A stretch of 64,000 bases of DNA, taken from Kappaphycus alvarezii (lineage: Eukaryota; Rhodophyta; Florideophyceae; Gigartinales; Solieriaceae). The notes under the pieces were generated by a model. It was not told the origin of the DNA, did no database searches, and was given only the letters and a program-made list of their open reading frames with translations. The translations under genes were made by a program, and so were the position numbers. The stretch spans positions 24,414 to 88,413 of the forward strand of contig NADL03000214.1 in NCBI GenBank assembly GCA_002205965.3, written 5' to 3'. Below are positions 31,047 to 60,222 of the stretch, piece by piece (position 1 is the stretch's first letter; every line of letters starts with the position of its first letter).

Positions 31047-31049
31047 TCT

Positions 31050-31613
31050 GTGACATGTGATGCGTGTGTGTTAGGAAAAGCAACTCGTGCTGTGATTCCT
31101 AAACAGCGCTCTGGAGGCAGGGCCAAACATTTGCTAGACTTGGTCCATTCGGACGTCTGCGGCCCACTCCAAGTACAGTCAGTAGGTGGTGCTAGATACT
31201 TTGTCACTTTTATCGATGACCACTCAAACTGGAGTGTTGTCTATCCGATGAAGAGTAAAGATGAAACGTTCCATTTTTATCAGAAGTTTGCCCAATATGC
31301 CTTCACACACACTGGTCAACGCGTGAAAGCGCTTCGATCTGATCGTGGAGGAGAGTATCTTTCTTCAGAGTTCCAATCCTTTCTATCGTCACAAGGAACT
31401 GTTCATCAAACGACCGCTGCATACACACCTGAACAGAATGGTGTGGCAGAACGGCTCAATCGTACCCTGATTGATCTCGTCAGGTCTATGCTGTCCCATA
31501 TGAAGGTTCCGAAAGCTTTCTGGGCTGAAGCTCTGATAACGCAGTTTACGTTCGCAATCGTGTCACGACAAGAGCTTTGGGTGGTCTCGTTACTCCATTT
31601 CACCTATGGATGA
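31050..31613 (+). pseudogene. F2 copia integrase (plus-strand copy)
   Basis: Zinc-binding end TCDACVLGKATRA, then the rve core with HSDVCGPLQ, FIDDHSNW, LRSDRGGEYLSSEF and YTPEQNGVAERLNRTL: the D, D and E catalytic residues are all present. A frameshift near 31530 breaks the text after FWAEAL (the minus copy reads DNAVYVRNRVTTRALGG). Confidence 0.88.
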
Positions 31614-33720
31614 AGAAAAAGCCCGATGTATCTCACCTACGTGTGTTTGGATGTCAATGCTGGTACAAGGTGCCTGGTAATGAGGTGCGTAAACTTGACG
31701 ACCGCGCAACAACGGGAATGTTTGTTGGGTATCCGCCGGGAACTAAGGCCTACAAAATTTGGGATGACAATCTACATCGCATTGTTATTTCCAGGGATGT
31801 GCAGTTCGATGAGTCGAGACCAGGGGCTTGCTCTTACGATGAACATTTTTCCGATGATAATGATGAGGACGTTGACCCAGGGAGGCGACCATACTGACGA
31901 AATTGAGTCTGAAACATCTAATGGTGATAATGAACATGGCATTGAAACAGGGTCACCGGCGGAGGTTGAGAACTTTCAAAGTCAAGGTATTGAGCCCGAC
32001 TCAACTAATGAGACTTTGCAACCAGAAGAAGTGAGTGGTGAGCAAGATGCTGGTCCCGGCGATGTGGAACCTCGCCGCTCCACTCGTTCACGACGCCCAC
32101 CCGACAGTGGTGGACAGGCCTGGTGGGAACCAGCTTACTCACACCTTCCTGTGGCGACATCAACATACCGAACTCCTTTAAAGAGGCGATGGGTGGACCA
32201 CAACCACAGTTCTGGCAGAAAGCGATTGATAAGGAGCTAGAGTCCCAACGCAAAAACAAAACCTGGGCACTAGTGCCACGATCGGAAGGTGCCAATATTC
32301 TAACTTCTCGCTGGGTATTTACTGTAAAGGACATGCCGGACGATAACGGCACGTTGACTCAAAAGGGAAAAGGTCGCCTGGTTGTGCGGGGCTTTCAACA
32401 AATTGAGGGGATTGATTACTCAGAGACTTTTGCGCCGGTGATCAAATTTACAACGATTCGATTGTTGTTGGCGATTGTAGCCCACTTCGATTTAGAGCTT
32501 CATCAAATGGACGTGGTCACGGCCTTTCTGAACGGTGACTTAGAAGAGGATATTTATATGGAGCAGCCTGAAGGTATCGTTGACTCTTCCAGGCCCAATC
32601 ATGTTTGCAAACTTCTCAAGGCTATCTATGGTCTTAAGCAAGCGAGTCGACAATGGCACAAAAAGATTGACGATTTCCTTATTCACACGCTTGGCTTCAA
32701 GACTACGAGAAGTGACGCCTGTCTATATACAAACATATCAGAAAAAGGCGTTATGCTGATTGCCCTATATGTGGATGACTTGCTTCTTGCGGGAAGTGAC
32801 CTGAAAGCCGTGACCTGGATGAAAGGTGAACTGAACAAGAGATTTGAGATGAAAGATTTAGGCGAGGCCAAAAAGTGCATTGGGCTTGAAATAAGTAGAA
32901 AAAGGGTCCCTAGACGGATCTATATCTCGCAGACAGAGTATGCCAAGTCCATTTTGAAACGTTTTGGTATGGCCAGTTGCAATCCCGTGAGGACTCCGAT
33001 GGAACAAGGATTACACCCTGAGATGTCAACTAGCCCGTATTGCGATGTACCATATCGACAGATCATTGGCTGCTTAATGTTTCTTATGGTAGGGTCACGT
33101 CCAGATCTTGCATATGTGGTGGGAAAACTGTCCCAACACTGTGAGAACCCTCGCGAGGACCACTGGCAAGCAGCCAAACGAGTTCTGAGATATATCAAAG
33201 GAACGCTCTCACTAGGTGTAATTCTAGATGGAAATCTCCCAGTGCAAACTCTAGAGGGCTTCAGCGATGCAGACTGGGGTGGTTGCTTGGACTCGAGAAA
33301 GTCCACCAGTGGATATGTGTTCAAACTGTGTGGGGGAGCTATTAGTTGGTCTCTAGGAGACAAACGGTCGTTGCGAAATCCACATGCGAAGCGGAGTATA
33401 TTGCACTGTGTGAGGCTTGCAAAGAGGCAGCTTGGCTCAGGTGCCTTCTTGCAGACGCATTGGGAAAGTCGAAAGACAGCACAGTTACAATCGGGTGTGA
33501 TAATGCTGGTACAATAGCGTTTGCGGGTAACGAAGGAGTGAACAGGCGAAATAAGCACATTGACATATCATATCATTTTGTCCGAGATGCTGTGACTCGA
33601 AAGATTGTTTCACTGTTTCACGTACCTTCTACAGATATGCCAGCAGATATACTCACCAAGCCTCTTGGTCGCATTCTATTCATAAATGCATAAAATCTCT
33701 AGGCCTCGGAGAGCTGCACG
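31577..33720 (+). pseudogene. F2 copia integrase tail, RT and RNase H (plus-strand copy)
   Basis: KPDVSHLRVFGCQCWY linker, then the 464-residue frame 32123-33517: NKTWALVPR, GRLVVRGFQQIEGIDYSETF, HQMDVVTAFLNGDL (first catalytic Asp), YVDDLLLAGS (catalytic pair, about 32768-32797), YGLKQASRQWH. RNase H resumes in another frame at 33346 (TVVAKSTCEAEYIALCEACK ... DILTKPLG, 33645-33670). Frameshifts lie near 31880 and 33345; otherwise the sequence is nearly intact and very close to the minus-strand copy. Confidence 0.9.
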
Positions 33721-33737
33721 ATGCTTAGGTCATGTAA

Positions 33738-33747
33738 TCGAGGGGGG
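33738..33747 (+). other. F2 polypurine tract
   Basis: TCGAGGGGGG immediately before the TGTTGTTG start of LTR2. A G-run next to the 3' LTR is the plus-strand primer site in LTR elements. The same tract adjoins LTR2 at 43468-43477 and 39413-39423 (seven C there). Confidence 0.85.
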
Positions 33748-35034
33748 TGTTGTTGATTTGGCAAGACGATCACATGACCCCACATCGGTGCCAAACCTAA
33801 AGAGGCATGAGGCATGTTCCACGTGTACACATGCACACGTGTTGAATGAAGGGTGGCCTAAGGCATTCCGGAAGAAATCCAAAGTTCCCAGGGACGAAAG
33901 TACGATTTTGAGAGATCAGCGATTTAGAGGGCAAAATGTTGTTTATGGGGTGATTTTACGTAGGGTAGGGTACTATAAGTGGATGATGAGTATACTGTAT
34001 GAGAGATATGCTGAGGAAAGCTATGTACACGTGTACGTGGTGGCAGTTGTGTATGTGATGTACACGTGGTACAGCTAAGAGTAGAAACCTTTTGTGCAGT
34101 GTTGTACACGTACTGTACTAGTGCCAAATGAGGAACTGTACTTCGCACTGTACATCGTAATATACCAAGTACTGTACTCCTTACTATACCTGAGTTTGTA
34201 CAGTAGGAATCAATTATGGCAATACTGTCATGACTGCTAGAAAGAGGTATTTGATTTTATATTATGTATGAGGATTCTAGTTATGATTACGGGTTTTATC
34301 CAGCTGCATCCAAAAATCGGTTATGTGATTTCATCATATGTATGAGGTTTCTAGTTATGATACGGTTTGTACCTGCATCCAAAAATCAGTTATGTGATTC
34401 CATCATACGTATGTGGTTTCTAGTTATGATATTGGTTTGTACAACTGCATCCAAAAATCAGTTATGTGATTCCATCATACGTATGTGGTTTCTAGTTATG
34501 ATATTGGTTTGTACAACTGCATCCAAAAATCAGTTATGTGATTCCATCATACGTATGGTTTCTAATTATGATATTGTTGTACACTGCATCCAAAAATCAG
34601 TTATGTGATTCCATCATATGTATGAGGTTCGTAATTATGATGAAGATTGGACCGACTGCATCCAAAATCAGTTATGTGATTCTATTTACGTATGACGGAT
34701 TGAGTCCGTTATTTTGGCACAAGGGAATTCGTTCCGGTAAGTCTGCAAAATAAGGTACTGTATTGATGTGTGTATTGGGCCAACCTATTTACACAAATTT
34801 GTCAACTTTGGAAGCAGTTCCAAATTTGCCCCTAATGACTGTTATCACCGGGCCAAGATCTTGAAATCCGCTCAAATGGCTCAGTTTGTGATTCTGTTAG
34901 TGGACGCAGTGAGTTAGAAAGTAGTTGTAGGTTGTACTTAAGGCCAGGATTTTAGAGTTCCGAGTAAATTCTGGGTAGCAAGCCCGCAACTTCATCCGTC
35001 CAGCAAAGTCCTTCACCCTCTCCGATTCCCATTA
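33748..35034 (+). repeat. LTR2 (F2 copia LTR), complete copy a
   Basis: 1287 bp, the same length as the inverted copy at 56722-58008. Begins TGTTGTTGATTTGGC. Contains clustered CACGTG/GTACACGTG motifs (33815-34075) and a tandem array. Its right end is inferred from the primer-binding site that follows. It is the 3' LTR of the plus-strand F2 copy but is directly followed by another F2 leader, so it is shared by two elements in tandem. Confidence 0.88.
34256..34700 (+). repeat. ~72-bp tandem repeat array in LTR2
   Basis: Six units recognisable by TTATGTGATTCCATCAT at 34321, 34390, 34462, 34534, 34601 and 34672 (periods 69, 72, 72, 67, 71). Each also holds CATACGTATG (palindrome), TTTCTAGTTATGAT and GCATCCAAAAATCAG. 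Because 72 is a multiple of three, a spurious repeated open frame runs through it. Enhancer-like LTR repeats are a plausible role. Confidence 0.9.
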
Positions 35035-35048
35035 GGTTATGGGCCCAG
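35035..35048 (+). other. F2 primer-binding site, half initiator-tRNA type
   Basis: GGTTATGGGCCCAG is the exact reverse complement of CTGGGCCCATAACC, the anticodon arm of eukaryotic initiator tRNA-Met. Drosophila copia is known to prime from a cleaved iMet tRNA at this region. The same 14 nt recur at 56708-56721 (F2, inverted) and 53880-53893 (F1, inverted, directly abutting LTR1). Confidence 0.88.
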
Positions 35049-35128
35049 TTCAACGCCGTCTCTTTCTCTGAACCCCGTAAGTCGCCGTGTGTTGCTGCAT
35101 TTTTTTTGTCTATCTCAGTCTCTTGATT

Positions 35129-35794
35129 ATGTCTACTCGTTCCGGTAAGCTATTTGAATAATTCCATTTCTTTGCACATCGAAGTGATTCTCTTTGCACC
35201 TTTTGGTTGGTCTAAAGACTCATAATCCCAAAAGCTGTTACTGACGATCACTTCCACTTTTGTGCCTGCTTTTGCGGGGTTGTGCTAGACTCGGAATTAG
35301 CCCTGGTGCCCCGAGTGCCCAGGGCTGCGACAGTTAGGACTTTGCCATCTGTGGGGAGGACAGTTGTGGAATCGATCGAAGTACTCGAACCAGAAGGACC
35401 GCCGCCGAAGACGCTCGCGCTTCCCTCGTCTAGGGAAAGGTATAGGATCCCTCGTAAGTCAGTACCTCTGGATAAGCCAATAAAGAAAGTTCAACGCCTC
35501 TCGGCAAAGAAAGCTAAAGCCCTCGCCGATCGAGTTGCCAAGAAGGAACTAAAGGCTAAACGAAGAGTTCCGCCGAGGAACAAGAGGTACTGCAAGCTCT
35601 GTGATATTAGCTGCAATAGCGCACAGACATTCTACGATCACATCAATTCTAAGGGTCATAGGACTAGAGAGAAAAACAAGAAAAAGACCCCTAGGTGTAC
35701 TGCTTGTGATAGAGTGTTCGATTCCCACGAGGTTCTCAAGCGTCACGAGAACGGGAAGGAACATTTGGAAGTAGTTTTGTTCCAGAGAATTTAA
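35129..35794 (+). CDS. two-C2H2 zinc-finger protein gene in the F2 leader (intact copy)
   Basis: Two-exon model: exon 1 35129-35144 (MSTRS plus one base), intron 35145-35288 (144 bp; GTAAGC donor, ACTGAC branch-like motif, TGCTAG acceptor), exon 2 35289-35794 in frame from DSELALVPRV. About 173 residues. The middle is very basic (KPIKKVQRLSAKKAKALADR). Two fingers follow, each C-x2-C-x12-H-x5-H: CKLCDISCNSAQTFYDHINS with the second His after KG, and CTACDRVFDSHEVLKRHENG ending KEH. This spacing is the U1-C/JAZ class, often RNA- or dsRNA-binding. It lies between the F2 primer-binding site and the pre-gag hairpin, so it is carried inside the retroelement leader. Role unknown; RNA binding is inference. 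Confidence 0.8.
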
Positions 35795-35900
35795 AGAGAT
35801 CCATTTTTTTGTTTGAAGCGACGTCTTTGGCCTTTGCTTTAGTCTAGAGTTTCGTGTGCTGTGTTCTTATAGAGGTGGCTTGCCACTACAGGGGACTATC
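35795..35900 (+). other. F2 leader remnant after the zinc-finger gene
   Basis: Matches the leader before gag in the inverted F2 copy (55864-55939) up to GGGGACTATC, the left arm and loop of the pre-gag hairpin, where LTR1 copy b begins. Confidence 0.75.
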
Positions 35901-42849: not shown

Positions 42850-43467
42850 CCAATAGCATAACTAGAAACCTTATACGTATGCTGGAATCACATAACTGAT
42901 TTTGGATGAAGCTCGGTAAAACCCATAATCATAACTAGAAACCTCATACGTAATATGAAATCAAATACCTCTTTCTAGCAGTCATGACAGTATTGCCATA
43001 ATTGATTCCTACTGTACAAACTCAAGTACAGTAAGAAGTACAGTACTTGGCATATTACGATGTACAGTGCGAAGTACAGTTCCTCATTTGGCACTAGTAC
43101 AGTACGTGTACACACTGCACAAAAGGTTTCTACTCTTAGCTGTACCACGTGTACATCACATACACAACTGCCACCACGTACACGTGTACATAGCTTTCCT
43201 CAGCATATCTCTCATACAGTATACTCATCATCCACTTATAGTACCCTACCCTACGTAAAATCACCCCATAAACAACATTTTGCCCTCTAAATCGCTGATC
43301 TCTCAAAATCGTACTTTCGTCCCTGGGAACTTTGGATTTCTTCCGGAATGCCTTAGCCACCCTTCATTCAACACGTGTGCATGTGTACACGTGGAACATG
43401 CCTCATGCCTCTTATGAGGTTTGGCACCGATGTGGGGTCATGTGATCGTCTTGCCAAATCAACAACA
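42850..43467 (-). repeat. partial LTR2, copy c (3' LTR of the inverted F2)
   Basis: Same content and same truncation point as copy b. Directly follows the F2 polypurine tract on the minus strand, so it is the 3' LTR of the inverted F2 element, lacking its outer half. Confidence 0.88.
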
Positions 43468-46400
43468 CCCCCCTCGATTACATGACCTAAGCATCGTGCA
43501 GCTCTCCGAGGCCTAGAGATTTTATGCATTTATGAATAGAATGCGACCAAGAGGCTTGGTGAGTATATCTGCTGGCATATCTGTAGAAGGTACGTGAAAC
43601 AGTGAAACAATCTTTCGAGTCACAGCATCTCGGACAAAATGATATGATATGTCAATGTGCTTATTTCGCCTGTTCACTCCTTCGTTACCCGCAAACGCTA
43701 TTGTACCAGCATTATCACACCCGATTGTAACTGTGCTGTCTTTCGACTTTCCCAATGCGTCTGCAAGAAGGCACCTGAGCCAAGCTGCCTCTTTGCAAGC
43801 CTCACACAGTGCAATATACTCCGCTTCGCATGTGGATTTCGCAACGACCGTTTGTCTCCTAGATGACCAACTAATAGCTCCCCCACACAGTTTGAACACA
43901 TATCCACTGGTGGACTTTCTCGAGTCCAAGCAACCACCCCAGTCTGCATCGCTGAAGCCCTCTAGAGTTTGCACTGGGAGATTTCCATCTAGAACTACAC
44001 CTAGTGAGAGCGTTCCTTTGATATATCTCAGAACTCGTTTGGCTGCTTGCCAGTGGTCCTCGCGAGGGTTCTCACAGTGTTGGGACAGTTTTCCCACCAC
44101 ATATGCAAGATCTGGACGTGACCCTACCATAAGAAACATTAAGCAGCCAATGATCTGTCGATATGGTACATCGCAATACGGGCTAGTTGACATCTCAGGG
44201 TGTAATCCTTGTTCCATCGGAGTCCTCACGGGATTGCAACTGGCCATACCAAAACGTTTCAAAATGGACTTGGCATACTCTGTCTGCGAGATATAGATCC
44301 GTCTAGGGACCCTTTTTCTACTTATTTCAAGCCCAATGCACTTTTTGGCCTCGCCTAAATCTTTCATCTCAAATCTCTTGTTCAGTTCACCTTTCATCCA
44401 GGTCACGGCTTTCAGGTCACTTCCCGCAAGAAGCAAGTCATCCACATATAGGGCAATCAGCATAACGCCTTTTTCTGATATGTTTGTATATAGACAGGCG
44501 TCACTTCTCGTAGTCTTGAAGCCAAGCGTGTGAATAAGGAAATCGTCAATCTTTTTGTGCCATTGTCGACTCGCTTGCTTAAGACCATAGATAGCCTTGA
44601 GAAGTTTGCAAACATGATTGGGCCTGGAAGAGTCAACGATACCTTCAGGCTGCTCCATATAAATATCCTCTTCTAAGTCACCGTTCAGAAAGGCCGTGAC
44701 CACGTCCATTTGATGAAGCTCTAAATCGAAGTGGGCTACAATCGCCAACAACAATCGAATCGTTGTAAATTTGATCACCGGCGCAAAAGTCTCTGAGTAA
44801 TCAATCCCCTCAATTTGTTGAAAGCCCCGCACAACCAGGCGACCTTTTCCCTTTTGAGTCAACGTGCCGTTATCGTCCGGCATGTCCTTTACAGTAAATA
44901 CCCAGCGAGAAGTTAGAATATTGGCACCTTCCGATCGTGGCACTAGTGCCCAGGTTTTGTTTTTGCGTTGGGACTCTAGCTCCTTATCAATCGCTTTCTG
45001 CCAGAACTGTGGTTGTGGTCCACCCATCGCCTCTTTAAAGGAGTTCGGTATGTTGATGTCGCCACAGGAAGGTGTGAGTAAGCTGGTTCCCACCAGGCCT
45101 GTCCACCACTGTCGGGGTGGGCGTCGTGAACGAGTGGAGCGGCGAGGTTCCACATCGCCGGGACCAGCATCTTGCTCACCACTCACTTCTTCTGGTTGCA
45201 AAGTCTCATTAGTTGAGTCGGGCTCAATACCTTGACTTTGAAAGTTCTCAACCTCCGCCGGTGACCCTGTTTCAATGCCATGTTCATTATCACCATTAGA
45301 TGTTTCAGACTCAATTTCGTCAGTATCGGTCGCCTCCTCTGGGTCAACGTCGACGTCATTATCATCGGAAAAATGTTCATCGTAAGAGCAAGCCCCTGGT
45401 CTCGACTCATCGAACTGCACATCCCTGGAAATAACAATGCGATGTAAATTGTCATCCCAAATTTTGTAGGCCTTAGTTCCCGGCGGATACCCAACAAACA
45501 TTCCCGTTGTTGCGCGGTCGTCAAGTTTACGCACCTCATTACCAGGCACCTTGTACCAGCATTGACATCCAAACACACGTAGGTGAGATACATCGGGCTT
45601 TTCTTCATCCATAGGTGAAATGGAGTAACGAGACCACCCAAAGCTCTTGTCGTGACACGATTGCGAACGTAAACTGCGTTATCAAGAGCTTCAGCCCAGA
45701 AAGCTTTCGGAACCTTCATATGGGACAGCATAGACCTGACGAGATCAATCAGGGTACGATTGAGCCGTTCTGCCACACCATTCTGTTCAGGTGTGTATGC
45801 AGCGGTCGTTTGATGAACAGTTCCTTGTGACGATAGAAAGGATTGGAACTCTGAAGAAAGATACTCTCCTCCACGATCAGATCGAAGCACTTTCACGCGT
45901 TGACCAGTGTGTGTGAAGGCATATTGGGCAAACTTCTGATAAAAATGGAACGTTTCATCTTTACTCTTCATCGGATAGACAACACTCCAGTTTGAGTGGT
46001 CATCGATAAAAGTGACAAAGTATCTAGCACCACCTACTGACTGTACTTGGAGTGGGCCGCAGACGTCCGAATGGACCAAGTCTAGCAAATGTTTGGCCCT
46101 GCCTCCAGAGCGCTGTTTAGGAATCACAGCACGAGTTGCTTTTCCTAACACACACGCATCACATGTCACAGATTCACAGTCAGAAGATGAGCTAGCGTCT
46201 CTTGTTATATCTGAAGAGGAGATATGAAGTCCACTTACCACGTTCTTACGAGCCATGGACAATATTCCTTGAGTGTGAACGTGGGCCAATCTTTCATGCC
46301 ATGTCTTCAAAGAGGCTTTGTGCGCCGAATGAACCTCGTTACATGTGTCAAGCACATACAGCTCTCCTCGACTTGTGGCAGTAGCCACGATGCAGTCACT

Positions 46401-51172: not shown

Positions 51173-52384
51173 CTACAGAGATAGAGAATATTCGAAACTA
51201 GGAACGTGGACAACATCTCGCAGAATACACCGCTTTCGAGAACCATCTACTAATAATGTGAGCTCCACGTCACCTCGCCCAGCAATCTTAGCCCGGGCTT
51301 TAGTTCCCATTTCGACTGAGGCTGCAGAAAATTCGGTATAATTCGTGAAAACACTCCTATCGTAAGTCATATGGGAAGTACATGCGGAATCTGCGTACCA
51401 AGAGGAAGTTCCGGCCGAAATCCCGGCCTGTTTAATTCGTGACATGAGGCAAACAATTTCATCATCAACGCTGTCCCCACTATCTGCTGAAGGATGAGAA
51501 TCAGTCGAATCAAATACATTTGCACCTACGAACGCCTGCTGATCTCTTCTCGGGCGATTTTTCTCGTTTCGATGATTATTAGATGCTCTGCCACTACGAG
51601 AACCGGATGCACGATAGCCCCTTGGAGCTTCCGGGCGCCTACCGTTCACATCTTTGCCCCAGCATCTGTCCGCGGTGTGACCAGAATGACCGCAGTTCGT
51701 ACAGTGCAGCTGTCTAGCATTACCTCCGTAGTCATTCGGACGGGCATTGGATATGAGTGCAGCATTGGATTTTGTCCCTTTTGACTCCCTCATTTGAGCA
51801 CGCTCCTCTTCCTGCAACAACCGGCTCTTCACAAATTCCAAAGTAAACACCCTGTCCTCATTGCCGAGCGCATCCAAGGCAACGATGAGATTGTCGAACC
51901 GAGGTGGCAATCCATTAAGCACAGCCATGGCTATCTCTTTGTCATCGATAGTCACATCCATGGATTTCAGGGTCGCTGCCAACTGTGTTACACGGTTAAC
52001 GTACTGCAAAACTCTCTCATTACCATCCATAGCCGCGGTGTAAAACCGGCGTCGAGCCGCAAGTTTATTGAGGAGTGTGTGCCTCTCAAACGTGTTGAGA
52101 ATAATAGTCCACATCTCCTTTGCAGTTGCCGCAGTGCGCACATGCTCAAGGTGCTCATCAGAAAGGGACAACCCGATGCGCGCCCGTGCTTTGCGGTCGG
52201 CCCTAGTCCATGCTTTGAAAGCCCTATCATCCGATTCCTCAGGCGGATCATCCACAATGTAGTCATCAAGCTCCCGGGCGAGAAGAAGCTGCACCTTCTG
52301 CTTCCAAACATGGAAATTATTGTTGGTGAGCTTTTCAATTCGAACTCCGCCTCCGCGATCGTCCATGACTACGTCTTTATCCAA
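51173..52384 (-). CDS. F1 copia gag-protease open frame (403 aa)
   Basis: Starts MDKDVVMDDRGGGVRIEKLT, then the capsid-like UBN2-type region (FHVWKQKVQLLLARELDDYI; TAKEMWTIILNTFERHTLLN; LPPRFDNLIVALDALGNEDR), and a basic linker. The CCHC knuckle CTNCGHSGHTADRC lies around residues 225-240. Protease SSWYADSACTSHMTYDRSVF has D-S-A in place of the usual D-S/T-G. The frame is uninterrupted to VPSFEYSLSL and is the longest intact gag in the window. The start is the first ATG after the leader hairpin. Confidence 0.9.
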   Translation of the reverse strand: MDKDVVMDDRGGGVRIEKLTNNNFHVWKQKVQLLLARELDDYIVDDPPEESDDRAFKAWTRADRKARARIGLSLSDEHLEHVRTAATAKEMWTIILNTFERHTLLNKLAARRRFYTAAMDGNERVLQYVNRVTQLAATLKSMDVTIDDKEIAMAVLNGLPPRFDNLIVALDALGNEDRVFTLEFVKSRLLQEEERAQMRESKGTKSNAALISNARPNDYGGNARQLHCTNCGHSGHTADRCWGKDVNGRRPEAPRGYRASGSRSGRASNNHRNEKNRPRRDQQAFVGANVFDSTDSHPSADSGDSVDDEIVCLMSRIKQAGISAGTSSWYADSACTSHMTYDRSVFTNYTEFSAASVEMGTKARAKIAGRGDVELTLLVDGSRKRCILRDVVHVPSFEYSLSL

Positions 52385-52461
52385 GACCCTTTGTATCTGA
52401 AACCTCTATTACCACGTATGCAGTGAGTATGCAAAGTCCTCTGTTCGGGTATCCCAAGCCG

Positions 52462-52476
52462 GCGACCGATAGTCGC
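52462..52476 (-). other. pre-gag hairpin, F1 version
   Basis: Minus strand GCGAC-TATCG-GTCGC, 78 bp upstream of the gag ATG, followed by GGCTTGGGAT. Same loop and same pairs as the F2 version except one pair swapped G-C to C-G. Confidence 0.65.
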
Positions 52477-53510
52477 TTGTCACGGCAAGCCTTTCCCTAT
52501 AAGAAGTTTGCAGCGTTTACTCAAAGACACGTGGTGTTTAATTTCCAACTCTTTACCTCTTTAGTTTTCCTCCTCTTTACCTCTTTACCACCTCTTTATT
52601 TGTGCCTTAGGGCGCTACCCCTGTATATCGGCCAGTGCTGGTCTTTCAACTTTGAGCGCAATCCGTGTGCCACGAGTAAGCACAGCGACTTTACCTGTAG
52701 ACGGCCAGGAATTTTCAGCCACTACCCCGAAAGGTCCCCGCAGCAAAGGGCGTCTTACCACAATCACAGTCTTTCCGTACTAACTCAGGCGCGTTTCCTT
52801 CCGGACTGTGTTGCTTGACTTCCGTCGTACTCGTGTGAAAGCACTCAAGGTCACCAATGAGCCTCGTCCTTCCGTGCACAGCACGTATCTACACCTCAAC
52901 AGAAGTATAGCCAGCAGGTACCAAAGTACAAGTGCAGAACACTAGTACCCGGTATGCTACCAGAGTAAGGAATTAGAAGACAGTCGTTCCCTCTCCGACC
53001 ACGGGCGATGGTGTTTCGCGTACGTATCGGTCGTTCAAGCGAGGAGCGTCTCTGTCCCGCCGGCGCGCAAAAGGGCCACTGCAACGGACCGACTCGGCTG
53101 GTACACCGTGATTCCCACCGGGAATCGGGTTCAGTCTTACGACTTCTGATAACTCGCGTTATCGCGTGGGTTTGTATGGTACGGTCCGTCCAACTCGCGT
53201 TACACAAAGGCACTGTTCTCAAAAGAGTACAGCCGGTGAGAGGATCACAAAACCGATTGCCAAGACCACGATTCGGCAAAAGAATCGGACAAACTTGGGC
53301 GGACCCCCGGCACTCTGTCTTCTTCTTTTCCGTTGCCGTGAAGGCTTTCCAAGAGTGCAAGGGGTATCAACAACCAGGCCTAGATTCCTCCTCAAACAAC
53401 AAGGCCAATATTTCCAAACAATAAACTCGAGCTGACGATTGCCGAATGACCACGACCACCACAAAAGAGACAGAAAACCAAACCAACAAACAATGACCAG
53501 CAATGACACC
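52477..53510 (-). other. F1 leader, no recognised gene
   Basis: Unusually long leader between the primer-binding site and gag. The 154-residue minus-strand frame 53360-52896 has no recognised domain and no zinc-finger spacing, unlike the F2 leader. Confidence 0.45.
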
Positions 53511-53513
53511 ACA

Positions 53514-53738
53514 AAGCACTCAGGATCCTCACACAGAGTGCTTGAAACACAAAATTGTTCTCAACAGTAGTAGAGCACAAACAACGATTGCTCTGATTCA
53601 ACACACAATGGTAACCACAAAAACACTCAGGATCCACACACAGAGTGCTTGACAACCTTAAAGTTGGTTCGTATCAACAAAAGCTTCCAACAACACACAA
53701 TGAGACCACAAAAACACTCAGGATCCACACACAGAGTG
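53514..53738 (-). repeat. three stem-loop repeats in the F1 leader
   Basis: AAGCACTC...GAGTGCTT at 53514-53543 (8-bp perfect stem), and CACTC...GAGTG at 53624-53647 and 53715-53738. Loops share AGGATCC(A/T)CACACA. Units 2 and 3 also share CAACACACAATG upstream. Candidate dimerisation or packaging elements, given their position just after the primer-binding site in the transcript. Confidence 0.7.
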
Positions 53739-53879
53739 CTTAACAATCACCAAATGGGTCCTAACAAAGACAAGAACAATCACCACAAAGCAAATGACAA
53801 CACCAACAGCACCAACAACACAGAGAAAGCAATTACCTCAACGTCAACGTCAACGGTTGAGGGACGGATAGCGGTAGGA

Positions 53880-53893
53880 CTGGGCCCATAACC
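53880..53893 (-). other. F1 primer-binding site, half initiator-tRNA type
   Basis: Minus strand GGTTATGGGCCCAG begins at the base after the LTR1 end CCTTTCATCA. Complementary to 14 nt of the iMet anticodon arm, implying a primer 3' end at ...CATAACC. Confidence 0.92.
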
Positions 53894-55104: not shown

Positions 55105-55801
55105 CGGAGTGTCCATTGTGACCACAGTTGGTGCATGTCAAAGTCGAAACACGCCTTGCCTCAGGGATGTGCCAATAAGAGCAGAACTTGGCGGATTCTG
55201 TCTTCTAGTAAACTTCATCGATGCACGTTGCTCCTCTTGGCAGGCGACTTTTTACATATTCTACTCCGAAAATGTTATCTTCGGATCCAAGAGCGTCAAG
55301 CGCTACAATGAGATTTTGAAACCTCTGCGGAAGACCATTGAGAACTGCCATAGCCATTTCCTTGTCATCAATTATGACTCCCATTGACTTTAAGCGAGCT
55401 GCTAGGTGTCGCACACGTCCTATATACGGCAAAAATTTCATTGTCTAGCATGGTGACCGTGTAGAAGTCTCTCCGGGCAGCCAGCATATTTAGTAATGTG
55501 TGGCGCTCAAAAACTTCCAAGATGCGTCCCACATTTTTGGCTGTGACAGCATCTCTTACATGATCCAGGTGATCATCAGACAGCGACAGGCCGATGATGG
55601 CCCTGGCCTTTCGATCCCTTGCTTCCATGCCTTTTAAGTGGAAGATTGTTCATCTTCAGGAACGATGCCATCAGTAGTGTACTGTTCCACATCGCGAAGG
55701 GCCAACAGGAGCTGAATCTTCTGTTTACACACGTGGAAATTGGCATCCGTGAGCTTTTCGATCTTCATAGATCCTCCTCCTTGATCTTCTCCGCTACTCA
55801 T
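55105..55801 (-). pseudogene. F2 copia gag, 5' part (inverted F2)
   Basis: ATG at 55801: MSSGEDQGGGSMKIEKLTDA, then GLSLSDDHLDHVRDAVTAKN (about 55600-55540), HTLLNMLAARRDFYTVTMLD, DDKEMAMAVLNGLPQRFQNL, ending NCGHNGHS where F1c is inserted. One frameshift near 55440. Homologous to the F1 gag. Confidence 0.88.
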
Positions 55802-55848
55802 TGCAATATTCTAGAGGTGCTAATGTTCCGTTCGAAGATCCCAAGCCG

Positions 55849-55863
55849 GGGACCGATAGTCCC
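55849..55863 (-). other. pre-gag hairpin, F2 version
   Basis: Minus strand GGGAC-TATCG-GTCCC, about 48 bp before the gag ATG, followed by CCGGCTTGGGAT. Also at 60189-60203 (plus strand), and half-present at 35892-35900. Confidence 0.65.
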
Positions 55864-55939
55864 TTGTAGTGGCAAGTTCACCTCTATAAGAACACAGTAC
55901 ACGAAACTCTAGACTAAAGCAAAGGCCAAAGTAGTCGCT

Positions 55940-56624
55940 TCAAACAAACAAATGGATCTCTTTAAATTCGCTGGTACAAACTATGTTCAAATGTTCCTTT
56001 CCGTTCTCGTGACGCTTGAGAACCTCGTGGGAATCGAACACTTTATCACAAGCAGTACACTCAGGGGTCTTTTTCTTGTTTTTCTCTCTAGTCCTATAAC
56101 CCTTAGAATTGATGTGATCGTAGAATGTCTGTGCGCTATTGCAGCTAATATCACAGAGCCTGCAGTACCTCTTGTTCCTCGGCGGAACACTTCGTTTAGC
56201 CTTTAGTTCCTTCTTGGCAACTCGATCGGCGAGGGCTTTAGCTTTCTTTGCCGAGAGGCGTTGAACTTTCTTTATTGGCTTGTCCAGAGGTACTGACTTA
56301 CGAGGGATCCTATACATTTCCCTAGACGAGGGAAGCGCGAGCGTCTTCGGCGGCGGTCCTTCTGGCTCGAGTACTTCGATCGATTCCACAACTGTCCTCC
56401 CACAGATGGCAAAGTCCTAACTGTCGCAGCCCTGGGCACTCGGGGCACCAGGGCTAATTCCGAGTCTAGCAAACCCCGCAAAAGCAGGCACAAAAGTGGA
56501 AGTGATCGTCAGTAACAGCTTTTGGGATTATGAGTTTTTAGACCAACCAAAAGGTGCAAAGAGAATCACTTCGATGTGCAAAGAAATGGAATTATTCAAA
56601 TCGCTTACCGGAACAAGTAGACAT
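55940..56624 (-). pseudogene. zinc-finger gene in the F2 leader, copy 2 (broken)
   Basis: Exon 1 56624-56609 (ATG TCT ACT TGT TCC G), intron 56608-56466 (143 bp, same GTAAGC donor and TCTAG acceptor), exon 2 from 56465. A one-base loss near 56398 (TCTGTGGGAGG, against TCTGTGGGGAGG in the intact copy) shifts the frame. Finger 1 has Tyr in place of the second zinc-binding His (INSKGYRT). Finger 2 is intact (CTACDKVFDSHEVLKRHENG). Position between PBS and gag is the same as expected for the intact copy. Confidence 0.82.
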
Positions 56625-56707
56625 AATCAAGAGACTGAGATAGACAAAAAAAACAATGCAGAAACACACGGCGACTTACGGGGTTCAGAGAAAGAGACGG
56701 CGTTGAA

Positions 56708-56721
56708 CTGGGCCCATAACC
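56708..56721 (-). other. F2 primer-binding site (inverted F2)
   Basis: Plus strand CTGGGCCCATAACC, the iMet anticodon-arm match, separating LTR2 copy d from the zinc-finger leader. Confidence 0.88.
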
Positions 56722-58008
56722 TAATGGGAATCGGAGAGGGTGAAGGACTTTGCTGAACGGATGAAGTAGCGGGCTTAGCTACCCAGAATTTACTCGGAAC
56801 TCTAAAATCCTGACCTTAAGTACATCTGACAACTACTTTCTAACTTACTGCGTCCATTAAAAGAATCCCACAAACTAAGCCATTTGAGCGGATTTCAAAA
56901 TAGTGGCCCGGTGATAACAGTCATTAGTGGCAATTTTGGCTTGACAAATTTGTGTAAATAGGTTGGCCCAATACACACATCAGTACAGTACCTTATTTTG
57001 CAGACTTATCGGAACCGAATTCCCTTGTGACAAAATAACAGACTCAATCCGTCATAGGTGAAATAGAATCACATAACTGATTTTGGATGCAGTCGGTAAA
57101 ATCTTCATCATAATTACGAACCTCATACATATGATGGAATCACATAACTGATTTTGGATGCAGTTGTACAAATCAGTATCATAACTAGAAACCACTTGCG
57201 TATGATGGAATCACATAACTGATTTTTGGATGCAGTTGTACAAATCAGAATCATAACTAGAAACCACATACGTATGATGGAATCACATAATTGATTTTTG
57301 GATGCAGTTGTACAAACTAAAATCATAACTAGAAACCACATACGTATGCTGGAATCACATAATTGATTTTTGGATGCAGTTGTACAAACTAAAATCATAA
57401 CTAGAAACCACATACGTATGCTGGAATCACATAACTGATTTTTGGATGCAGCTGGATAAATCCCGTAATCATAACTATAACCTCATACGTAATATAAGAT
57501 CAAATACCTCTTTCTAGCAGTCATGACGGTATTGCCATAATCGATTCCTACTGTACGAACTCAAGTACAGTAAGAAGTACAGTACTTGGCATATTACGAT
57601 GTACAGTGCGAAGTACAGTTCCTCATTTGGTACTAGTACAGTACGTGTACACCACTGCACAAAAGGTTTCTACTCTTAGCTGTACCACGTGTACATCACA
57701 TACACAACTGCCACCACGTACACGTGTACATAGCTTTTCTCAGCATATCTTCATACAGTATACTCATCATCCACTTATAGTACCCTACCCAACGTAAAAT
57801 CACCCCATAAACAACATTTTGCCCTCTAAGTCGCTGACCTATCAAAATCGTACTTTCGTCCCTGGGAACTTTGGTTTTCTTCCGAAATGCCTTACGGCTA
57901 TCCTTCAATAAACACGTGTGCATGTATACACGTGGAACATGCCTCATGCCTCTTATGAGGTTTGGCACCGATGTGGGGTCATGTGATCGTCTTGCCAAAT
58001 CAACAACA
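56722..58008 (-). repeat. LTR2 copy d (5' LTR of inverted F2)
   Basis: 1287 bp, ends CCAAATCAACAACA at 58008. Tandem array at about 57055-57500 with six or so units of GATGGAATCACATAACTGATTTT type. Confidence 0.9.
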
Positions 58009-58840: not shown

Positions 58841-60222
58841 TGTTGTTGATTTGGCAAGAAGATCACATGACCCCCACATCGGTGCCAAGCCTCATAAGAG
58901 GCATGAGGCATGTTTCACGTGTAAACATGTACACTTATTGATTGAAGGCTGGCCCTAAGGCATTTCGGAAGAAATCCAAAGTTACCGGGGACGAAAGTAC
59001 GATTTTGAGAGGTCAGCGATTTATGAAAATTGTGCATAAATTTTGACAAGTGGAACTTGGCCCATTGTTCCCGAGGCTATAGATTACTTCCTGCAATCTC
59101 ATTGGCTGATAGGGCAATACTATCTATTCTATTGGCTACTGTGTTACAGTGTAAGGACTGTAGCGGTGCGAGGGTTGACTGTGGGCTACTTTAGAGGGAA
59201 GAATGTTGTTTATGGGGTGATTTTACGTAGGGTAGGGTACTATGTGGATGAGGAGTATACTGTATGAGAGATATGCTGAGGCAGGCTATGTACAGGTGTA
59301 CGTGGTGGCAGGTGTGTATGTGATATACACGTGGAACAGATAAGAGTAGAAACCTTTGGAGCAGTGGTGTACAAGTACTGTACTAGTGCCAAATGAGGAA
59401 CTGTACTTCGGACTATACATCGTAATGTACCAAGTACTGTACTTCTTACTGTACTTGAGTTTGTAGAGTAGGAATCGGTTATGGCAATACAGTAATGGCT
59501 CCTAGAAAGAGGTATTTGATTTTACATGGCGCATAAGGTTTCTAGTTATGATTACGGATTGTCTGTCTGCATCCAAAAATCAGTAATGTGATTCCATCAT
59601 ACATATGGGGTTTATTATTATGATATGTTTTGTTTAGGACTTTACCATCTTGGGAAGGACAGTTGTGGAATCGATCGAAGTACTCGTGCCAGAAGGACCG
59701 CCGCCGAAGATGCTCGCGCTTCCCTCATCTAGGGAAAGGTATAGGATCCCCGTAAGTCAGTACCTCTGCATAAGCCAATAAAGAAATTTCAACGCCTCTC
59801 GGCAAAGAAAGCTAAAGCCCTCGCCGATCGAGTTGCCAAGAAGGAACTAAAGGCTAAACCGAGAGTTCCGCTGAAGGACAAGAGGTACTGCAAGCTCTGT
59901 GATATTAGCTGCAATAGCGCACAGACATTCTACGATCACATCAATTCTAAGGGTTATAGGACTAGAGAGAAAAACAAGAAAAAGACCCCTGAGTGTACTG
60001 CTTGTGATAAAGTGTTCGATTCCCACGAGGTTCTCAAGCGTCTCGAGAACGGGGAGGAACACTTGAAAGTAGTTTTGTCCCAGAGAATTTAAAGAGATCC
60101 ATTTGTTTGTTTGAAGCGACTTTTTGGCCTTTGCTTTAGTCTAGAGTTTCGTGTGCTGTTGTTCATAGAGGTGAACTTGCCACTACAAGGGACTATCGGT
60201 CCCCGGCTTGGGATCTTCGAAC
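58841..60222 (+). mobile_element. internally deleted F2 fragment
   Basis: LTR2 from its TG (58841) into the tandem array, then a junction near 59633 to zinc-finger exon 2, then leader through the pre-gag hairpin (60189-60203), ending CGAACAGACA at 60222. The LTR end, PBS, exon 1 and intron are missing. The 58841-59633 part also carries a foreign stretch near 59025-59190. Confidence 0.8.
59634..60091 (+). pseudogene. zinc-finger gene copy 3 (broken, no exon 1)
   Basis: Exon 2 homolog from GRTVVESIEVL to the stop. Frameshift near 59750. Finger 1 has Tyr for its last His and finger 2 has Leu for its first His (KRLENGEEH), so neither finger could bind zinc normally. Confidence 0.85.

What the first reader, a model, noticed from the sequence alone, without database searches (positions are those of the whole stretch)
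35035..35900. A copia retrotransposon carrying a spliced C2H2 zinc-finger gene in its 5' leader
Seen: PBS, then a two-exon gene (35129-35794) with canonical splice sites, then the pre-gag hairpin. The same order holds in the inverted F2 element (PBS 56708, gene 56624-55940, hairpin 55849, gag 55801), so the gene belongs to the element and is not a chance neighbour. Known: copia elements normally have only gag-pol; U1/JAZ-type fingers often bind RNA. Inference: the protein could bind the element's own RNA or regulate host or element expression, and splicing could separate zinc-finger mRNA from genomic RNA. Retention of the intron shows the element moves as unspliced RNA.
Basis: partly seen in the sequence, partly recalled or inferred. 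Interest (0 to 1): 0.93.

Follow-up and report, generated by a model that had tools for sequence, protein, structure and literature searches.

The report
Spliced zinc-finger gene inside copia retrotransposon
A very abundant jumping gene, probably of a red alga, carries an extra small zinc-finger gene in front of its normal genes, and the sequence suggests that splicing decides whether each transcript makes that protein or the element's structural proteins.

Summary
Window 35129-35144 plus 35289-35794 encode an intact 173-aa protein with two JAZ/U1-type zinc fingers, around a 144-nt GT-AG intron, between primer-binding site and gag of a Ty1/copia element (F2). The gene belongs to the element: 20 of 20 loci picked by gag carry it (15 complete), and a second family (F3) has it, with dN/dS 0.21 between them.

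(2) Unspliced RNA gives only a 10-codon ORF at the zinc-finger AUG, so an AUG start for exon 2 needs the splice. (3) The intron is the best-conserved leader part (4.2% between families; exon 2 20.7%, synonymous sites about 47%), folds better than shuffles, and none of 58 leaders lacks it.

Best model: a splicing switch with the intron as RNA signal and the protein as its likely ligand, in logic like Cer1 CERV or Rev. Layout and selection are shown; splicing, binding and function are inferred.

The parts
33748..35034 (+). F2 LTR (TGTTG...CATTA), the 3' LTR of an upstream F2 copy and directly 5' of the gene copy; holds a 72-nt tandem repeat at 34266-34695
   Evidence: LTR ends from 5-bp target-site duplications in 3 of 5 elements
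35035..35048 (+). primer-binding site GGTTATGGGCCCAG (complement of the initiator-tRNA anticodon arm: recalled, not tested); holds an AUG
35077..35118 (+). possible second, tiny intron in the 5' leader (GTAAGT ... TATCTCAG); the donor is kept in 42 of 42 complete leaders and 15 of 15 parsed F3 rows; use not tested
35129..35144 (+). ZNF exon 1 with the start codon; on unspliced RNA it opens only MSTRSGKLFE-stop
35145..35288 (+). intron, 144 nt, GTAAGC...TGCTAG, branch-point-like TACTGAC at 35239; folds better than shuffles (z -3.63) and is hyperconserved between F2 and F3
35289..35794 (+). ZNF exon 2 with stop; basic helix plus two C-X2-C-X12-H-X5-H fingers; no Met and no ATG in any frame (F2 copy L014 counted)
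35795..35900 (+). ZNF-gag spacer, cut at 35900 inside the pre-gag motif by another family's LTR
31048..33741 (+). pol part of the upstream F2 copy whose 3' LTR leads into this gene
55801..56722 (-). second F2 leader: PBS, ZNF gene (frame-broken, stop after 69 aa), pre-gag motif, then gag
55830..55890 (-). pre-gag motif (GGGACUAUCGGUCCC; GCGACUAUCGGUCGC in F1)
59634..60197 (+). third copy of ZNF exon 2, 5'-truncated
52367..53893 (-). leader of sister family F1: same PBS and pre-gag motif, one ATG (in the PBS) in 1,525 nt, no ZNF match

Best explanation
F2 and F3 are Ty1/copia retrotransposons with a third gene of their own, ZNF, in the leader. One transcript would feed two fates. If the leader intron is removed, the AUG of exon 1 joins the 168-codon exon 2 and the zinc-finger protein is made. 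If the intron stays, the same AUG ends after 10 codons, and ribosomes scan or reinitiate over about 800 nt kept free of AUG until gag. The unspliced RNA is also the genome, since mobilised copies keep the intron. The intron, more conserved than exon 2 or gag at synonymous sites, is a structured RNA signal present only on unspliced RNA. The protein, with dsRNA-type fingers, most likely binds that signal (or the leader) and shifts the balance towards unspliced RNA by slowing splicing or aiding export or packaging. Shown: element ownership in the sample, purifying selection, AUG avoidance, intron conservation and predicted fold. Inferred: that splicing happens, gag initiation by scanning, RNA binding, and the feedback.
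For: Ownership: 20 of 20 gag-picked loci carry the gene; F3, 77% aa identity, has it at the same place, 9 of 15 parsed copies intact (17 looked at). Selection: dN/dS 0.21 (dS 0.73, dN 0.15). AUG avoidance: 0 against 8.7 expected (F2) and 0 against 9.3 (F3), while gag (21 vs 16.9) and pol (58 vs 59.3) are normal; 39 of 42 leaders have none, 3 have one; out-of-frame ATGs in exon 2 are avoided too (0 seen, 3.2 and 3.6 expected, P 0.012 and 0.007); 55 of 65 homologs have no internal Met. Intron: 6 of 144 differences vs 104 of 503 in exon 2 and 57 of 122 synonymous sites (Fisher P 5e-7 and 6e-17); differences outside the main helices; z -3.63 and -2.90; 0 of 58 leaders without it. Fingers: PF12171 and PF12874 above cut-off.
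Confidence: 0.5

Rival explanations
1. The hyperconserved intron is a packaging or dimerisation signal (psi) read by Gag, placed in the intron so that only unspliced RNA is packaged; ZNF does something else.
For: Intron present only on unspliced RNA, predicted structured, conserved far beyond synonymous sites, kept in 58 of 58 leaders. Retroviral psi elements lie downstream of the major splice donor (recalled).
Against: F1, with a similar gag and the same PBS, shows no similar intron, so a Gag signal common to the families would be elsewhere, for example the pre-gag motif of F1, F2 and F3.
Confidence: 0.25
2. ZNF acts on the host or on the element's DNA (transcription or silencing control), and the intron merely limits its dose.
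For: The fold comparison lists DNA-binding C2H2 pairs as well; an extra ORF in an orchid LTR element was proposed to answer host surveillance (PMC9289625, abstract).
Against: The profile matches above cut-off are the JAZ and zf-met kinds; the classical zf-C2H2 profile stays below its cut-off (17 vs 25.2 bits). It does not explain why the intron is the best-conserved part.
Confidence: 0.2
3. The likeness of the F2 and F3 introns reflects a recent recombination tract between families, not constraint.
For: Only two families compared; the conserved block is contiguous and runs about 43 nt into exon 2; template switching is common in LTR elements (recalled).
Against: The left edge falls at the splice donor; differences lie outside the main helices; three homologs that extend upstream begin with GVV-(L/I/T)-D, as if read through an equivalent intron end (P0013, P0019, P0033).
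Confidence: 0.2
4. A host gene captured by chance and carried as a passenger.
For: Gene capture by LTR elements is known (recalled).
Against: Purifying selection between two families (dN/dS 0.21), AUG avoidance in its codons, and 65 homolog clusters of which none carries a host-gene name (the 4 named hits start at E 2.8e-4).
Confidence: 0.04

Closest known systems
Cer1 of C. elegans and its CERV protein (PMC10309623, abstract seen)
   Same: LTR retrotransposon with an extra protein made from a spliced mRNA; CERV is needed for export of unspliced genomic RNA.
   Different: Ours is Ty1/copia with a zinc-finger protein before gag; an export role is not tested here.
Rev/RRE of complex retroviruses (recalled)
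   Same: Protein from spliced RNA with an RNA target kept only on unspliced RNA: the logic of our model.
   Different: Different protein type and lineage; no binding shown here.
BARE1 of barley (PMC3735527, abstract seen)
   Same: Retrotransposon that divides its RNAs between fates, in part by splicing.
   Different: BARE splices to favour Gag from its single ORF; F2 would splice to make a separate protein and keep gag on unspliced RNA.
Orchid Ty3/Gypsy elements with an AlkB-type m6A RNA demethylase ORF (PMC9289625, abstract seen)
   Same: Extra RNA-acting ORF fixed in an LTR element lineage.
   Different: Gypsy type, enzyme domain, 25-kbp elements.
JAZ and ZFa dsRNA-binding zinc-finger proteins (PDB 2mkd, 1zu1)
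   Same: PF12171/PF12874 profile matches.

Membership tests
Ty1/copia (Pseudoviridae) | copia-type gag and RT domains (PF14223, PF07727) | tested here: met
   F2 gag, first 146 codons of L014: Retrotran_gag_2 84.4 bits, cut-off 27; F2 pol: RVT_2 236.6 bits, cut-off 31.6
Ty1/copia (Pseudoviridae) | integrase upstream of reverse transcriptase | tested here: met
   rve in ORF 46571-45183 (-) precedes RVT_2 in ORF 45678-43522 (-)
Ty1/copia (Pseudoviridae) | LTRs with PBS and short target-site duplication | tested here: met
   5-bp duplications AACCC, GCAAA, TATAG in 3 of 5 elements; no match in the other 2
JAZ/zf-met (U1-type) zinc-finger proteins | profile match above curated cut-off | tested here: met
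   PF12171 53.6 bits (22.6), PF12874 42.3 (21.2)
JAZ/zf-met (U1-type) zinc-finger proteins | fold like solved JAZ/U1-type fingers | tested here: inconclusive
JAZ/zf-met (U1-type) zinc-finger proteins | binding of structured RNA | not testable with these tools
   needs a binding assay
Rev/CERV-type export systems | protein made only from spliced RNA | tested here: inconclusive
   sequence demands the splice for an AUG start; no RNA evidence
Rev/CERV-type export systems | protein needed for export of unspliced RNA | not testable with these tools
   needs cells

The most novel reading that the evidence does not exclude
A Rev/RRE-like circuit arose in copia retrotransposons: a zinc-finger protein from spliced RNA recognises the structured intron of its own gene, which marks unspliced RNA for export, for translation of gag across an AUG-free leader, and for packaging. 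Homologs form 65 clusters of unnamed, mostly environmental proteins, so such 'complex' copia elements could be common but unseen.
Probability: 0.3. Interest if true: 0.87.

Novelty: new variant of a known kind. Interest (0 to 1): 0.76.

Why it matters
Ty1/copia elements are usually taken as simple gag-pol units. Here is a lineage in high copy number with its own regulatory gene, an intron better conserved than the proteins' synonymous sites, and leaders of 0.8-1.5 kb kept free of AUG. It makes the question how LTR elements divide one transcript between protein, messenger and genome testable with RNA-seq and small reporters. The AUG-free leader with a Met-free protein is also a simple search signature for more such elements.

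Tried and rejected

Literature: searches; among the papers listed (lists capped at 10-25) no title or abstract start describes such an element. Seen: outlines with abstracts of PMC3735527, PMC9289625, PMC10309623 and passages of PMC12477816. Subscription papers and preprints were not searched. Not done, because the genome search stayed busy: intron-less copies genome-wide (last tried), further families by protein, host rRNA.

Full report
Observation. Exon 1 is 35129-35144, the intron 35145-35288 (GTAAGC...TGCTAG, 144 nt, phase 1), exon 2 35289-35794; together 173 codons with no stop. The protein passes the curated cut-offs of PF12171 (zf-C2H2_jaz) and PF12874 (zf-met). Both fingers are C-X2-C-X12-H-X5-H, read from the alignment; that this spacing is typical of dsRNA-type fingers is recalled. 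This copy is a remnant: pol and 3' LTR of an upstream F2 copy run into it, and it stops at 35900 in the pre-gag motif, where another copia family's LTR starts. The inverted copy is complete in layout but frame-broken after 69 aa, and a third, 5'-truncated copy is at 59634-60197.

The element. F2 is Ty1/copia by gag and RT profiles and integrase-RT order. Typical fetched copies read LTR, PBS, ZNF, gag, pol, LTR, with 5-bp target duplications in 3 of 5 elements checked. In those three the two LTRs differ at 9 of 1147, 27 of 1073 and 14 of 1220 aligned sites, gaps apart, so they look young. The best two pol matches are unnamed environmental proteins (64-65%); the closest named ones are from Chondrus crispus, the best five at 55-58% identity (120 of 4752 matches listed). 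The host is therefore probably a red alga; rRNA was not reached because the search machine was busy.

Does the gene belong to the element? Searching the genome with the gene gave 40 of 40 scored hits at 99% or more (818 candidates). To avoid choosing by the gene, I searched with gag alone (40 scored of 768 candidates) and fetched the upstream side of 20 of the 40 places: 20 of 20 contain the gene, 15 complete from LTR end to gag, 2 cut by contig ends, 3 truncated or rearranged. Of 42 complete leaders from all fetches (41 F2, one F3), 27 have an intact reading frame (biased to best matches); among the 15 complete gag-picked ones it is 4. 40 of the 42 follow a strict F2 LTR end, the other two a variant or F3 one, and 40 are followed by the gag start; the two without are a contig end and the truncated window copy.

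A second family, F3, was met by chance at L022:8536-9407 (82% identity). Its own search gave 40 scored hits (781 candidates, which may overlap with F2's). Of 16 F3 loci fetched plus the L022 copy, 15 parsed and 9 have an intact 172-aa ZNF. F2 and F3 proteins are 77% identical, with dS 0.73, dN 0.15, ratio 0.21: the protein has been under purifying selection in active lineages. Gag over its first 146 codons is more constrained still (93% identity, synonymous sites saturated).

AUG avoidance. From the end of ZNF exon 1 to the gag start F2 has no ATG in 810 nt (8.7 expected from a first-order model), and F3 none in 824 nt counted from just after its start codon (9.3 expected). The F1 leader has one in 1,525 nt, the one inside the PBS (19.5 expected). 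Gag (21 vs 16.9) and pol (58 vs 59.3) are normal. 39 of 42 leaders have none and 3 have one, and 14 of 14 F3 copies in which gag was found have none. Given the protein and element codon usage, 3.2 and 3.6 out-of-frame ATGs would be expected in exon 2 of F2 and F3 and none is seen (P 0.012 and 0.007). Among 65 homologous protein clusters there are 13 internal Met in 10,382 residues, and 55 have none, against about 2% in F2 pol and F1 gag. The leader is thus kept clear for ribosomes on the way to gag, and the ZNF protein has been built without methionine. Two sites with the same PBS in L011 are followed by many ATGs, so not every such element here is AUG-poor.

Why splicing is implied. On unspliced RNA the ZNF start codon ends after MSTRSGKLFE. 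Exon 2 has no ATG, so an AUG start for this conserved protein needs the junction. Donor and acceptor are kept in the leaders parsed, a TACTGAC motif in 42 of 42. None of 58 leaders (the 42 and 16 F3 loci) lacks the intron, so the copied RNA is unspliced.

The intron. Between F2 and F3 it differs at 6 of 144 aligned sites plus 2 gap columns (7 of 144 in the many-copy alignment), against 104 of 503 in exon 2, 52 of 247 at the LTR end and 53% at gag third positions; synonymous sites of ZNF differ at 57 of 122. Within F2 the two regions decay at 0.81% and 1.29% (P 0.11), so a mutational cold spot does not explain it. It folds better than shuffles in both families (z -3.63 and -2.90), with the differences outside the main helices. 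There is no covariation, and with two families a recombination tract remains possible; the block also runs about 43 nt into exon 2.

Wider distribution. A profile search found 69 proteins at E 0.01 or better. 65 are unnamed, mostly environmental; the 4 named ones (ZMAT3-like proteins and a U1-type finger protein) match weakly, from E 2.8e-4. Three that extend upstream (P0013, P0019, P0033) begin with residues equal to reading through an intron end like ours (GVV-L/I/T-D), which hints that the intron is old. Their contigs could not be read, so whether they lie in copia elements is open.

Reading. The anatomy fits a splicing switch: spliced RNA makes ZNF; unspliced RNA is gag-pol messenger and genome. 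The most economical role for a structured RNA found only on unspliced transcripts, next to a protein of the dsRNA-finger kind made only from spliced ones, is a feedback pair, in logic like Rev/RRE (recalled) and Cer1 CERV (PMC10309623, abstract). I hold the layout, selection and AUG avoidance as shown, the switch as likely, and the pairing of protein and intron as a hypothesis (about 0.3).

Noticed in passing
L009 and L010 (contig C199, about 61000-80900): Head-to-tail array of about 4.2-kb units LTR-ZNF-gag-short pol remnant, with most of pol missing; 4 of the 5 complete ZNF leaders fetched there are intact.
   Followed up: partly
window 52367-53893 (-), family F1: A 1,525-nt leader with a single ATG (in the PBS) and no ZNF match: AUG avoidance seems older than, or independent of, the gene.
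   Followed up: partly
window 52440-52491 (-) and 55830-55890 (-): Pre-gag motif shared by F1, F2 and F3 in otherwise unlike leaders, with one covarying pair in its hairpin.
   Followed up: partly
window 35077-35118: A second perfect donor GTAAGT and a pyrimidine-rich CAG before the ZNF start codon, kept in F2 and F3; joined to the main acceptor it would give a leader without the ZNF AUG.
   Followed up: partly
window 34266-34695: 72-nt tandem repeat, 6.1 copies, in the LTR; the number appears to vary between copies.
   Followed up: partly
window 31047-33798 and 43417-46172: Long, nearly perfect inverted F2 pol copies with pieces of family F1 between them.
   Followed up: no
L011:9060 (+) and 6749 (-): Sites with the same PBS sequence followed by many ATGs; which element they belong to was not worked out.
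   Followed up: no
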